From Dethiobacter alkaliphilus (GTDB taxonomy: Bacteria; Bacillota; Dethiobacteria; DTU022; UBA8154): a stretch of 64,000 nt of DNA. The translations under genes and the position numbers were made by a program. Location of the stretch: positions 186,001 to 250,000 of the forward strand of contig JAENYV010000004.1 of the NCBI GenBank assembly GCA_016841605.1, given 5' to 3'. Below, piece by piece: positions 49,275-61,349 of the stretch (positions are counted from its first letter, which is position 1; each line of letters starts with the position of its first letter). Under the pieces are notes generated by a model. The model saw nothing but the letters and a program-made list of their open reading frames with translations. It made no database searches and had not been told where the DNA came from.

Positions 49275-50585
49275 TTAATACGATAATAAGCCGGGTAAAA
49301 AAGTGGCGAGGGGTGCAAAGACGATTAATAGGGCTATGCAGAGCACCAATGCTCCCAGAAAAGGCCAGATACCCTTAAATATTGTCTCAAGAGGTACATC
49401 CGGGACTATTCCTTTAATAATATAAACATTCATCCCCACAGGTGGTGTTATAACGCCCATGGCTACCACCATGACAATAATTACCCCGAACCAGATAGGA
49501 TCATAACCGAGGACATTTACAGCGACAGGGTAAAAAATAGGTATGGTTAAGAGGACGAGTGCCAAAGCATCGATAAAAAATCCCAGGATAAGGTAGACGG
49601 CCAAAATGATGGTCATAACGGCATAAGGAGGCAACGGCAGGTTTCCGGCCCAACTGGCCAATTCAAAAGGAATGCGGCTTACAGCCATTAATCTTCCGAA
49701 TATGACAGCCCCTGCCACAAGCAGCATAATCATTGCTGTTGTTCTTGTTGATTCCGTTAATGCTTTCTTTAATCCTTCCAGAGTTAGTTTTTTTTCGATC
49801 AACGATAGAACTAGAATGCCAAAAGCACCAACCGCCCCTGCTTCTGTCGGTGTAAACCATCCTTTAAAAAGCCCGCCCAGCGATAAGGCAAATATTAATA
49901 ATACTTCCCAGATTCCTCCATTCAGAGAACTGAACCTTTCTTGCCAGGAAAATTTCGGACCCGGGGGGGCAAGGGCGGGATTTTTCTTAGCCAGGATATA
50001 TACTGTAGCCATATATAAAAACATCAGCAGCAGCCCTGGAATAATTCCGGCCAGGAACAGGCTGCCCACAGACTGCTCTGTTGCGATGCCGTAGACAATA
50101 AAAATAACGCTTGGCGGGATGAGGACACCTAGTGCCCCCCCCGCTGCAACACTTGCAGTGGATAAGCTGTCATCGTACTGATATTTTTTCATTTCAGGCA
50201 TGGCAATAGCGCCGACAGTAGCAGCTGTTGCCGTATTGGAGCCGCATACGGCACCAAATATACCGCAAGTTACCTGAGTAGCGATGGATAGTCCGCCGGG
50301 CAAATGGCCGATTAATTTATAAGCAAAGTTGAAAAGCCGCGAACCTATGCCTGAATAATAAGCAATAAAACCCATGAAAACAAACATGGGGATCACGCTT
50401 AAAGTATACGAGGAAAAAGTGGAGTATATATCTTTCGATACAACTCGAAAAGCTGCTTCAGGTGTAACAATATAACTAAATCCCAGAAATCCCGCAACAG
50501 CCATCGCGAACGCTATCGGCATTTTAAGGCCCAGTAATATGAAAAAAAGTATAATTGCCAGTGAACCTGCAGTTATCTCATTCAT
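49275..50585 (-). CDS. dctM: TRAP transporter large permease, DctM
   Basis: 436-residue DctM with about twelve helices. Signature segments: GSNTATAATVGAIAMPEM, ALGVLIPPSVIFIVYG, TPTEAGAVGAFG and TPPVGMNVYIIKG. Separate from DctQ, unlike the fused permeases elsewhere in the window. Its start overlaps the end of the dctQ gene by 8 bases. Last gene of the T-box-controlled minus-strand operon. Substrate inferred to relate to tyrosine only from the leader. Confidence 0.93.
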   Translation of the reverse strand: MNEITAGSLAIILFFILLGLKMPIAFAMAVAGFLGFSYIVTPEAAFRVVSKDIYSTFSSYTLSVIPMFVFMGFIAYYSGIGSRLFNFAYKLIGHLPGGLSIATQVTCGIFGAVCGSNTATAATVGAIAMPEMKKYQYDDSLSTASVAAGGALGVLIPPSVIFIVYGIATEQSVGSLFLAGIIPGLLLMFLYMATVYILAKKNPALAPPGPKFSWQERFSSLNGGIWEVLLIFALSLGGLFKGWFTPTEAGAVGAFGILVLSLIEKKLTLEGLKKALTESTRTTAMIMLLVAGAVIFGRLMAVSRIPFELASWAGNLPLPPYAVMTIILAVYLILGFFIDALALVLLTIPIFYPVAVNVLGYDPIWFGVIIVMVVAMGVITPPVGMNVYIIKGIVPDVPLETIFKGIWPFLGALVLCIALLIVFAPLATFLPGLLSY

Positions 50586-51069
50586 TTGTTTTCACCTTTA
50601 GAGTTAATTTAATCATTCTGACTAATATTACCGCGCATAAGACTGCCAAACCCAAAGCTGCCACATAGATAAACGGATAAAAAGGAGTTTTGGTAGTGGG
50701 GGATACGATACCCGTCGATATCATACTCCTTGCGTAATTAGTAACGTGGAGCGAAGAAAGTGCTAAGAAAATTGCGGATAACAGATGTATAAAAAGATCT
50801 ACCGGTATTTTTACTTTTTCGGGAAATTTGTCCATAATAAAGCCTACAGCGATATGACTATTTTGGAAGGCGCAATGGGCTATGGCCAGGCCGATAATTA
50901 TTACTGTTATAAAACCCACATATTCATAGGTGCCGAGGATGGGGCTTCCCACGGTTACCCGTAGTATAATGTTAAATACGACCAAAAGCATGACAGCGAT
51001 TATCGCCAGTCCGGCTATTTGATCCAGAAATTTTGTTGCTTGACCTAACAATTTTTCACATTTATCCAT
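50578..51069 (-). CDS. dctQ: TRAP transporter small permease, DctQ
   Basis: 163-residue four-helix membrane protein. ATG at 51069 follows AGGAGAG on the minus strand; a longer open frame upstream lies in repeat DNA and is not coding. Conserved elements include EYVGFITVIIIGLAIAHCA and NSHIAVGF, typical of DctQ. Works with DctM (49275) and the DctP protein (51372). Confidence 0.9.
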   Translation of the reverse strand: MDKCEKLLGQATKFLDQIAGLAIIAVMLLVVFNIILRVTVGSPILGTYEYVGFITVIIIGLAIAHCAFQNSHIAVGFIMDKFPEKVKIPVDLFIHLLSAIFLALSSLHVTNYARSMISTGIVSPTTKTPFYPFIYVAALGLAVLCAVILVRMIKLTLKVKTNE

Positions 51070-51111: not shown

Positions 51112-51355
51112 AAGCAGGGGGACGGTTCCATGCGTCTTCCCGAACGGTATTTTCAGGGTAGTTTTCCGGCCCGCCGGCCTTCCTGACTTCTGACCTCTGC
51201 ATTTGAGGTAAGGGGACACACCTCATTTTCTTTGAGGTAAGGGGACACACCTCTTGCAGAGGAATGTCCCCAATGGAATGTCCACAATGAAATGATCCCA
51301 ATGGGAATGTCCTTAATATCCTTAATGGAATGTTTCCCAATGGAATTCCCCTTAA
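51112..51355 (-). repeat. Repeat-rich spacer between dctP and dctQ
   Basis: Holds two copies of GAGGTAAGGGGACACACCTC-like palindromes (near 51205-51225 and 51234-51254), a degenerate series of AATGGAATGTCC units (51265-51350), and GGGGGACGGTTC (51117-51128), which matches the REP sequences flanking the transposase at 60582. Because it lies within an operon, it may form mRNA hairpins that set the dctP to dctQM ratio. Confidence 0.7.
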
Positions 51356-51371
51356 GTATTCATTAATTGCA

Positions 51372-52457
51372 CTATTCGTAAATCTCGTTATATTTATCTG
51401 AAAGTTCTTTTACAAGTTGCAGTGCTCCTGCACCATCAAGTCCTTTTGCTTCCATGTCTTTAATAAATTCGTCCTGGATAGGCTCGACTAGCTCTATCCA
51501 CTTTGTCTTTTCTTCGTCGGAGAGTTCAATTATTTCCTGGTTGGTTTCTGTAACGGCAAATTCAATAGCAGACTCATTTTGCATATCCCAAAGTCCGATA
51601 GCAACTTCATCAAAAAAGTTTTCAGTCGCCTCCGTAATAGCTTCTTGCAGGTGCGGCGGTATGGAATTCCAGACATCCAGATTAACTGTTACAAAAAATA
51701 ATGTGTTGTAAAGGAAAGGAGTCAGCGTGACATAATCTGTAACTTCTGCATGTCTCCAGCCCTCCAGAACTTCCAGAGGTGATAAATTCCCCTGAACTAC
51801 TCCTTTGGATAATGCCTCATATGCTTCAGACTGAGGCATCGCGACAGGAGTAGCCCCGAGTGCTTCCAGAGTTTTTGCCGATAGTCCTGTTGCCCTGATT
51901 TCAAGATCTTGTATATCTTCCAGAGTCTTTACGGGAACTTTGGTAAAGAGATCCCCCGGGCCTGTGGTCAGAACCATCAATAGTTTAGTGTCTTGCACTT
52001 CAACAGGATCCAATGCTTTGATACCTTCCCAGGCCACTTTGCTTGCCGTTTTTGAATTGTTATAAACAACACCGGGAAGTTCAAAAACTTCCAGCAACGG
52101 AAAGCGTCCTCTTGTATAAGAGAAACAGGATAAACCAATATCCGCTATTCCGGTTTGAACTCCATCATAAATTTCTGCCGCGGTTAATAATGTTTCACCG
52201 GGGTAGCTAGTTATCTTAACCTGACCGTCCGTAACTTCGTCAATTAAAGCGGCCCAACCCTGAACGAGTGTTGTTTCGGCAGGATGTGTCGCCGGGAAAA
52301 AATGGGCCAGACGAAGATTTAGTGATATTCTTTCGACATTCTCCCCTGCAGGTTCTGTGTTGCCGGTAGCCTCCGGTTGAGAGCAACCTGCGAGGGTAGT
52401 GACAAGTAACATCAATAGTACAGATATAAAAACTAGAAAATTTAAATGCTTCCTCAT
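51372..52457 (-). CDS. dctP: TRAP transporter substrate-binding protein, DctP family (T-box controlled)
   Basis: 361-residue lipoprotein; lipobox LAGC with Cys25, then a typical DctP body ending in GAGALQLVKELSDKY. ATG at 52457 is chosen since AGGAGGAAG lies just upstream; the in-frame ATG at 52490 is not preceded by a ribosome site. First gene after a tyrosine-type T-box leader (52601-53037), so expression should rise when tRNA-Tyr is uncharged. A 303-base repeat-rich spacer separates it from dctQ. Confidence 0.9.
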   Translation of the reverse strand: MRKHLNFLVFISVLLMLLVTTLAGCSQPEATGNTEPAGENVERISLNLRLAHFFPATHPAETTLVQGWAALIDEVTDGQVKITSYPGETLLTAAEIYDGVQTGIADIGLSCFSYTRGRFPLLEVFELPGVVYNNSKTASKVAWEGIKALDPVEVQDTKLLMVLTTGPGDLFTKVPVKTLEDIQDLEIRATGLSAKTLEALGATPVAMPQSEAYEALSKGVVQGNLSPLEVLEGWRHAEVTDYVTLTPFLYNTLFFVTVNLDVWNSIPPHLQEAITEATENFFDEVAIGLWDMQNESAIEFAVTETNQEIIELSDEEKTKWIELVEPIQDEFIKDMEAKGLDGAGALQLVKELSDKYNEIYE

Positions 52458-52599
52458 TATTTCTCTTCCTCCTCTTACTAACTCTTTCATTCCGTCCGAA
52501 AATTAAAATGCATCTTCTTTACCTGCCGGGTTGCTTTTCACCTCCCGAAGCAATTTTTCGTTTACCCCATTTTTGTTTTCGCTGAAAACAGATTTATAT

Positions 52600-52996
52600 A
52601 TAAAAAGGCTTCCGTCCCTTAGGGACGGAAGCCTTGGCTTCACGCGGTACCACCCTGATTGAGCACATAGTGCCCCTCTCATTAAAAGGTACGGACCGGA
52701 ACTCTCCTATCCCATACCCTTAACAACAGAGCAATACTGCTTCTGTGGTGTCAGGTACGGACTGCAAATATTTCCAGCCTTATACCCCCTTCCTTGTAAC
52801 GGTGGAAGTTTCCGTCAAAGCCTACTGACCAGCCTCGAAAGCTCTGGCTTTCGGTTTGCTTTTCAAGAGTGTATTTCAGCAATTTAAGGTACCGGGTTGC
52901 ACCACCCCCCGGCTCTCTGAGAACCGTCGATTGCCTACTTCTCTCCATCATCAGATTTACATAATAGAAAGATAAATTGTTTACTAAAATAAACTA
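52600..52996 (-). ncRNA. T-box leader, specifier UAC (tyrosine)
   Basis: Complete T-box on the minus strand. Stem I has the lower helix GAGAG/CTCTT, a specifier loop with AAGTAG on the 5' side and TGAAATACA on the 3' side, and the upper helix GCAAT/ATTGC. The specifier reads UAC followed by the conserved A. The T-box sequence AGGGTGGTACCGCG is at 52656-52643; its UGGU bulge would pair with ACCA of a tRNA with discriminator A, which tRNA-Tyr has. A terminator follows. The regulated gene is the dctP of a TRAP system. Confidence 0.9.
52601..52635 (-). terminator. T-box-controlled terminator
   Basis: AAGGCTTCCGTCCCT pairs with AGGGACGGAAGCCTT and is followed by TTTTATAT on the minus strand. Its 5' arm lies just after the antiterminator, so the two structures can exclude each other as in other T-boxes. 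Confidence 0.9.
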
Positions 52997-53008
52997 AATT
53001 TGTCCTTA

Positions 53009-53037
53009 ATTTTAGCACAGGATATTAAATTCGTCAA
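53009..53037 (-). promoter_or_regulatory. Promoter of the T-box/TRAP operon
   Basis: Minus strand TTGACG (53037-53032), exactly 17 bases, TAAAAT (53014-53009), placing the transcript start about 30 bases before Stem I. Confidence 0.8.
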
Positions 53038-60536: not shown

Positions 60537-60581
60537 CAAAATAGCAAAAAGTGTTATATTAAATAATGGGTGATCACAACA

Positions 60582-61349
60582 ATGCCAAGAGCAGCCAGGG
60601 AGAAGAGCAAGACAGGGATTTATCATATTATTTTACGAGGTATTAACAGACAAGCGATATTTGAGGATAAGGAAGACTCTGCCAAATTATTGCGTACTTT
60701 AAAAGAATATCAAAAAATAAGTGAATATAAGTTATATGCCTACTGTTTGATGGGCAATCATATCCATCTGCTGCTTAAGGAAGAAAAGGAAGAAAAGGAA
60801 GAATTAGGAGTAGCAATGAGGCGTATCGGAGCTATCTATGTATATTGGTATAACTGGAAATATGAACGCTGTAGCCATCTATTTCAGGACCGATATAAAA
60901 GTGAAACCGTTGAAGACGATAAATACTTTTTGACAGTTCTGAGGTATATTCATCAAAACCCATTAAAAGCCGGATTAGTTAAAAATATTGCGGACTATAA
61001 ATGGAGTAGTTACGGTGAGTATATTGGGGAACAAAAAATTATAGACGCTAATTTTGTCTTGGGCTTATTCAGTGATGACAGAGAAAAAGCAATTGATGGA
61101 TTTAAGAGATTTCATGATATAATTGGTTGTGATTTTTGTCTGGAAACAGATGAAAAGAAAAAGATTAGAGACGATGAAGCAAAAGAAATGATTAAAAGAA
61201 TATGTAATGTATCCAGCTGTACAAAAGTTCAATTGTTTGAACCGGATAACAGAAACCGATATTTGAAAGTGCTCAAAGAAGAAGGATTATCTACAAGGCA
61301 AATAGCGAGACTAACGGGGATTAGCAGGGGTATTATAATAAAAGCGTGA
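60582..61349 (+). CDS. REP-associated tyrosine transposase (RAYT, Y1_Tnp)
   Basis: 255 residues. Y1 single-strand transposase of the TnpA-REP family: start MPRAAREKSKTGIYHI, the HUH metal motif MGNHIHLLL near residue 55, and the catalytic tyrosine region around YIHQNPLKAG. ATG at 60582 is preferred to GTG at 60570 by family comparison. Flanked by inverted REP sequences, the presumed substrates. The reading frame is intact. Confidence 0.88.
   Translation: MPRAAREKSKTGIYHIILRGINRQAIFEDKEDSAKLLRTLKEYQKISEYKLYAYCLMGNHIHLLLKEEKEEKEELGVAMRRIGAIYVYWYNWKYERCSHLFQDRYKSETVEDDKYFLTVLRYIHQNPLKAGLVKNIADYKWSSYGEYIGEQKIIDANFVLGLFSDDREKAIDGFKRFHDIIGCDFCLETDEKKKIRDDEAKEMIKRICNVSSCTKVQLFEPDNRNRYLKVLKEEGLSTRQIARLTGISRGIIIKA

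What the first reader, a model, noticed from the sequence alone, without database searches (positions are those of the whole stretch)
51372..53037. A tyrosine T-box controls a TRAP transporter
Seen: promoter, Stem I with specifier UAC, T-box sequence, terminator, then dctP-dctQ-dctM. Known: T-boxes usually control aminoacyl-tRNA synthetases, biosynthesis genes or amino-acid permeases. TRAP systems usually carry organic acids. Inference: this TRAP imports tyrosine or an acid precursor such as 4-hydroxyphenylpyruvate, prephenate or shikimate-type acids, which would give a substrate clue for a poorly characterised TRAP group.
Basis: partly seen in the sequence, partly recalled or inferred. Interest (0 to 1): 0.8.

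Follow-up and report, generated by a model that had tools for sequence, protein, structure and literature searches.

The report
Tyrosine T-box controls aromatic-acid importer
An RNA switch that senses shortage of charged tyrosine tRNA sits in front of a three-gene uptake system whose nearest solved relatives bind aromatic acids, so this bacterium probably imports tyrosine or, more likely, an aromatic acid it can turn into tyrosine when tyrosine runs short.

Summary
On the minus strand there is a promoter-like site, a full T-box leader (RF00230, 113 bits, E 3e-24, window 52960-52618) with specifier UAC (Tyr), an antiterminator whose UGGU matches the discriminator A of the genome's tRNA-Tyr(GUA), a strong terminator, then dctP, dctQ, dctM. 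It is not a one-off: seven of 61 genomes (own plus 60 relatives, four genera) carry the same UAC T-box before orthologous dctPQM. The same Tyr T-box type otherwise precedes DAHP synthase, prephenate dehydrogenase and EPSP synthase, which supports the specifier. The best sequence and fold matches of DctP are mostly TRAP binding proteins solved with aromatic acids (TarP with coumarate, cinnamate, 4-hydroxyphenylacetate). An 84% identical paralog without a T-box sits with indolepyruvate oxidoreductase, CoA-ligase and PaaK genes, and a Phe T-box precedes iorAB-CoA ligase-paaK elsewhere. Best reading: tRNA-Tyr starvation switches on import of an aromatic carboxylate (4-hydroxyphenylacetate or 4-hydroxyphenylpyruvate, less likely tyrosine itself) for tyrosine supply. 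The regulation is well supported by sequence; the exact substrate is not shown. No paper joining T-boxes and TRAP transporters was found in the held library.

The parts
53009..53037 (-). Promoter-like site TTGACG-17-TAAAAT, extended -10 (TG)
   Evidence: similar TTGAC..TATAAT boxes upstream of relatives' T-boxes
52618..52960 (-). T-box leader RNA (RF00230), Stem I to antiterminator
   Evidence: 113.1 bits, E 3.1e-24
52871..52873 (-). Specifier triplet UAC (Tyr)
   Evidence: alignment; rule in PMC7778990; identical in six relatives and in the own DAHP synthase/tyrA leader
52643..52656 (-). T-box sequence AGGGUGGUACCGCG; its UGGU can pair with the ACCA end of tRNA-Tyr(GUA)
   Evidence: sequence; tRNA-Tyr in L213 ends CTCTCC-A-CCA
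52605..52635 (-). Intrinsic terminator, 14 pairs followed by a U run; overlaps the 3' side of the antiterminator
51372..52457 (-). dctP: lipoprotein-type solute-binding protein, TarP-like (aromatic acids)
   Evidence: PF03480 E 2.7e-48; PDB matches
50578..51069 (-). dctQ: small TRAP permease
   Evidence: PF04290 E 3.8e-21
49275..50585 (-). dctM: large TRAP permease
   Evidence: PF06808 E 1.7e-102; TIGR00786 358 bits over cut-off 268

Best explanation
This is a transcriptional T-box riboswitch that reads tRNA-Tyr and governs a TarPQM-like TRAP importer. With tyrosine plentiful, charged tRNA-Tyr leaves the terminator at 52635-52605 formed and transcription stops before dctP. When uncharged tRNA-Tyr builds up, its anticodon GUA pairs with UAC and its free ACCA end with UGGU, the antiterminator forms and dctPQM is made. 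The importer then takes up an aromatic carboxylate, most likely 4-hydroxyphenylacetate (HPA) or 4-hydroxyphenylpyruvate (HPP) and less likely tyrosine itself. That acid is turned into tyrosine: HPP by transamination; HPA by CoA activation (PaaK type) and reductive carboxylation by an indolepyruvate-type oxidoreductase (IorAB). Shown here by sequence: leader anatomy, specifier, matching tRNA, TRAP genes, conservation, kinship of DctP to aromatic-acid binders. Inferred: tRNA-dependent switching, substrate, direction of transport and metabolic fate. The confidence is for 'Tyr T-box controlling import of an aromatic acid for tyrosine supply'; for HPA/HPP in particular it is about 0.45.
For: T-box and UAC specifier. 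UAC leaders before orthologous dctPQM in G001, G002, G015, G017, G018, G022, each 106-119 bits. The same Tyr leader class precedes DAHP synthase/tyrA/aroA in own and related genomes; the own TRAP and own DAHP synthase/tyrA leaders are 77% identical. tRNA-Tyr(GUA) with discriminator A. DctP profile and fold: the top solved matches are TarP with coumarate/ferulate/caffeate/cinnamate/4-hydroxyphenylacetate, metagenome TRAP proteins 'specific for aromatic acid ligands', Dde_0634 and Desal_3247. The carboxylate-binding Arg is conserved (R188). R. palustris TarP has nM Kd for cinnamic acids (PMC3610893). Paralog cluster: CoA ligase-iorAB-two 2-hydroxyacyl-CoA dehydratase/benzoyl-CoA reductase-like subunits-dctPQM-paaK. 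Desulfonatronum-type loci carry paaK near dctPQM, with an ACT-domain-like ORF between in two of three. A Phe (UUC) T-box precedes iorAB-CoA ligase-paaK in G000, and Phe T-box-iorA recurs in G002. An aryl-acid route to aromatic amino acids via indolepyruvate oxidoreductase is reported for M. maripaludis (PMC4162585, PMC3462420).
Against: No binding, transport or read-through data. The dctP-dctQ gap here is about 300 bp with inverted repeats, so co-transcription of dctQM is likely but not shown. The genome has a T-box-controlled tyrosine biosynthesis operon, so import is not obligatory. Close DctP homologs in the same clade lack a T-box (L065, L074, L077, L117), so the link is lineage-specific. 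Benzoyl-CoA-reductase-like genes near two of the iorA copies point to aromatic catabolism as well as, or instead of, synthesis.
Confidence: 0.7

Rival explanations
1. The TRAP system imports L-tyrosine itself and is a plain amino-acid permease in an unusual transporter class.
For: T-box-controlled tyrosine permeases (NhaC, NSS families) are the known pattern (PMC2494555). Dde_0634, a close solved relative, was crystallised with D-tryptophan according to my memory of 4NAP; the title shown was cut off before the ligand.
Against: The TarP complexes whose titles name the ligand have acids without an amino group. The paralog lies with aryl-CoA and aryl-oxoacid enzymes rather than amino-acid genes.
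Confidence: 0.25
2. The importer serves mainly catabolism of aromatic acids (phenylpropanoids, arylacetates) and the tyrosine T-box was captured with little physiological meaning.
For: The paralog and one other iorA copy lie with benzoyl-CoA-reductase-like and CoA-ligase genes; TarP of R. palustris is catabolic.
Against: The T-box is kept, with invariant specifier and compensatory changes, in seven genomes of four genera, and the T-box-linked operons hold only dctPQM with no catabolic genes directly attached.
Confidence: 0.12
3. The leader is a relic that no longer controls dctP.
For: About 150 nt lie between terminator and dctP start in the window, and dctP starts about 400 nt after the T-box motif in G015.
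Against: No other sizeable ORF on that strand lies between; terminator, antiterminator, specifier and promoter-like site are intact and conserved.
Confidence: 0.04

Closest known systems
Tyrosine T-box riboswitches (B. subtilis tyrS type; T-box leaders of NhaC/NSS tyrosine permeases, PMC2494555)
   Same: Full architecture from Stem I to antiterminator, UAC specifier, UGGU, terminator.
   Different: The controlled unit is a TRAP operon. TRAP is not among the T-box-controlled transporter families tabulated in that paper (ABC, LIVCS, APC, NSS, MFS, NHAC, DAACS). The linker before the antiterminator holds one or two extra hairpin-like units.
TarPQM (R. palustris RPA1782-1784; TarP_Csal, TarP_Sse, TarP_Rhp structures)
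   Same: DctP/Q/M composition; DctP is closest in fold and profile to the TarP/aromatic-acid group; conserved ligand-carboxylate Arg.
   Different: About 24-34% identical; lipoprotein of a Bacillota; control by a tRNA-sensing riboswitch instead of the CouR regulon; ligand unknown.
Dde_0634 / Desal_3247 TRAP binding proteins (PDB 4nap, 4pgn, 4pgp, 4n6d)
   Same: Best sequence matches in PDB (E down to 1e-50); a TRAP review lists indole acids among new TRAP ligands (PMC5812351).
   Different: 31-35% identical; the indole ligands of these particular entries are from memory.
Methanococcus aryl-acid pathway (indolepyruvate oxidoreductase used for biosynthesis)
   Same: iorAB homologs with PaaK-type CoA ligases; here one iorAB operon is under a Phe T-box.
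   Different: Bacterial, T-box controlled, with a related TRAP importer; the biosynthetic direction was not tested.

Membership tests
T-box riboswitch (RF00230) | Scores above the curated threshold over the whole model | tested here: met
   113.1 bits against 93, model positions 1-219
T-box riboswitch (RF00230) | Specifier loop triplet matching a tRNA of the host | tested here: met
   UAC; tRNA-Tyr(GUA) found in own genome
T-box riboswitch (RF00230) | UGGN complementary to discriminator and CCA end | tested here: met
   UGGU against ACCA
T-box riboswitch (RF00230) | Mutually exclusive antiterminator and intrinsic terminator | tested here: met
   Both present and sharing GGCUUCCGUCCCU
T-box riboswitch (RF00230) | Uncharged-tRNA-dependent antitermination | not testable with these tools
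   Needs in vitro transcription
TRAP transporter (TRAP-T, DctPQM) | DctP, DctQ and DctM subunits encoded together | tested here: met
   Pfam above cut-off for all three
TRAP transporter (TRAP-T, DctPQM) | Conserved Arg that binds the ligand carboxylate | tested here: met
   R188 invariant in 11 homologs, aligned with the Arg of EIRG/VRAS in solved proteins
TarP-type aromatic-acid TRAP group | Closest kinship to TarP and other aromatic-acid binders among solved TRAP binding proteins | tested here: met
   The best-ranked entries by VIA-align, Foldseek and profile search are mostly this group; isethionate, ectoine and sialate binders score lower
TarP-type aromatic-acid TRAP group | High-affinity binding of an aromatic carboxylate | not testable with these tools
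   Needs purified protein

The most novel reading that the evidence does not exclude
In this Bacillota lineage aromatic-amino-acid T-boxes control a salvage route that builds tyrosine and phenylalanine from environmental aromatic compounds: Tyr T-box to a TarP-like importer, Phe T-box to iorAB plus aryl-CoA ligases for reductive carboxylation of arylacetates, and in two relatives Tyr T-box to a tyrosine-phenol-lyase-like enzyme that could make tyrosine from phenol.
Probability: 0.35. Interest if true: 0.7.

Novelty: new variant of a known kind. Interest (0 to 1): 0.52.

Why it matters
T-boxes are known to control synthetases, biosynthesis genes and amino-acid permeases. A T-box on a TRAP importer extends this to a transporter class that carries organic acids, and ties a physiological need (tyrosine) to a TRAP clade whose ligand can now be guessed and tested. 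If the substrate is an aryl acid, it shows a tRNA-sensing switch controlling salvage of aromatic acids for amino-acid synthesis.

Tried and rejected
Alternative specifier frames (AUA, ACA, AAU) were rejected: the bulge rule, invariance in seven TRAP leaders, and sharing with DAHP synthase/tyrA leaders all give UAC. Spread beyond the lineage: of 80 loci from a collection of 84,980 species only the same taxa had a T-box motif within 1 kb upstream of dctP; this used the motif with up to two mismatches, so a degenerate T-box could be missed, and only the best 80 of 161 relatives were returned. A plasmid search with the leader found nothing. The two comparative T-box papers and the TRAP ligand-screening paper that I know of are not held, so prior mention of a TRAP operon under a T-box cannot be excluded; searches for the terms together found none. 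Tree: all T-box-linked dctP fall in one 18-row clade, but the T-box label needs at least four gains or losses on it, so single origin with losses and repeated capture were not told apart.

Full report
Observation. The whole window holds one Rfam match above threshold, a T-box at 52960-52618 on the minus strand. Stem I with AG bulge and distal loop, specifier bulge GAAAUACA, Stem II region, IIA/B region, antiterminator and terminator are all there. The specifier by the published positional rule (PMC7778990) is UAC; the same paper lists UAC for 99% of Tyr T-boxes. A promoter-like site lies just upstream, and the terminator is the strongest in the scanned region. dctP, dctQ and dctM follow on the same strand. 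The real dctP start is probably the ATG at 52457, behind a GGAGG, and dctQ probably starts at 51069.

Cognate tRNA. The genome (G000, 4.07 Mb, 36 contigs) encodes tRNA-Tyr(GUA) with discriminator A, which complements UGGU.

T-boxes in the same genome. There are 16 hits; specifiers and downstream genes were read. Tyr UAC: DAHP synthase-tyrA-aroA-aroC-aroB, and this TRAP operon. Phe UUC: pheS, a second DAHP synthase followed by a prephenate-dehydratase-like gene, an SSS-family symporter, and iorA-iorB-CoA ligase-paaK. Trp UGG: trp genes. A TrpX-family ABC binding protein has a probable UUC (less certain). The rest fit Ile, Leu, Arg, Ala and Val. So transporters of different families are under aromatic-amino-acid T-boxes, and the tyrosine one is a TRAP.

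Conservation. Among 60 relatives the DctP orthologs of G001, G002, G015, G017, G018 and G022 have the same leader with the same specifier. A consensus structure over eight leaders has 72 pairs, 16 with at least one compensatory change. A pattern search for this Tyr Stem I found it in 25 of 60 genomes with no hit of the reversed control; downstream genes were DAHP synthase, prephenate dehydrogenase, EPSP synthase, dctPQM, and in G009 and G019 an enzyme of the tyrosine phenol-lyase/tryptophanase family. In 80 loci from named genomes the T-box is present only in the same taxa. Homologs in Desulfotomaculum-type bacteria, Syntrophomonas, Desulfosporosinus and Desulfonatronum lack it. In a tree all T-box-linked proteins fall in one well supported group of 18 rows that also holds T-box-free members.

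Substrate. Sequence profile, Foldseek and VIA-align agree that the nearest solved proteins are aromatic-acid binders or their close kin: Desal_3247, Dde_0634, TarP of three proteobacteria with coumarate, ferulate, caffeate, cinnamate or 4-hydroxyphenylacetate, and metagenomic proteins titled as specific for aromatic acid ligands. The model used has mean pLDDT 78. TarP binds cinnamic acids with nanomolar affinity, and the co-located ABC binding protein CouP was crystallised with 4-hydroxyphenylpyruvate (PMC3610893). An 84% identical paralog in the same contig, without a T-box, stands in a cluster with an acyl-CoA ligase, iorAB, two dehydratase/benzoyl-CoA-reductase-like subunits and paaK. In three Desulfonatronum-type loci a PaaK gene lies just before dctPQM, in two of them with an ACT-domain-like ORF between, named here by eye. 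These contexts point to arylacetates and aryl-2-oxoacids.

Mechanism. A shortage of tyrosine raises uncharged tRNA-Tyr, the leader antiterminates, and an importer for a tyrosine-related aromatic acid is made. Conversion to tyrosine by transamination (from HPP), or by CoA activation and reductive carboxylation (from HPA), is inferred. Enzymes for the second route are encoded, one set is under a Phe T-box, and aryl-acid-based synthesis through indolepyruvate oxidoreductase is reported for M. maripaludis (PMC4162585, PMC3462420). Direct import of tyrosine is the main rival; a mainly catabolic importer is the second.

Novelty. This is a known riboswitch class and a known transporter class in a combination not found in the held literature; key subscription papers could not be read. 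I file it as a new variant of a known kind.

Noticed in passing
G000:C8:127583-127864 (-), loci L010/L053/L181; also G002 locus L183: A Phe (UUC) T-box directly precedes iorA-iorB, followed in G000 by an acyl-CoA ligase and a PaaK-type ligase, which suggests that indolepyruvate-type oxidoreductase is used for phenylalanine synthesis from arylacetates.
   Followed up: partly
L161 (G009), L172 (G019): A Tyr (UAC) T-box precedes an enzyme of the tyrosine phenol-lyase/tryptophanase family (scores higher with the tyrosine phenol-lyase model, below its cut-off), normally catabolic; it may run in reverse to make tyrosine.
   Followed up: partly
L016:1501-1619 (-) (G000:C18:28880-28998): A partial Phe-type (UUC) Stem I behind its own promoter-like site lies about 65 nt upstream of the complete Tyr T-box of the DAHP synthase/tyrA operon, without an antiterminator: a relic or a two-tRNA leader.
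   Followed up: partly
alignment A2 columns 226-333 (window about 52660-52790, -): Between Stem IIA/B and the antiterminator the leader holds an extra hairpin region; window, G001, G002, G017 and the own DAHP synthase leader carry two similar GGGUAU..GUCCGUACC units, G015, G018 and G022 only one.
   Followed up: no
window 51200-51340: The dctP-dctQ gap holds two copies of GAGGTAAGGGGACACACCTC, found nowhere else in the genome, and a series of AATGGAATGTCC-like repeats; the paralog L047 has an 83 bp gap without them.
   Followed up: partly
window 60570-61349 (+): A REP-associated (IS200-like) transposase ORF, named by eye; a near-identical piece is at L057:1662-2015.
   Followed up: no
L092 10880-10989 (-) and L112 6313-6417 (+): Pairs of T-box motifs only about 105-110 nt apart, which suggests duplicated antiterminator units of tandem T-boxes.
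   Followed up: no
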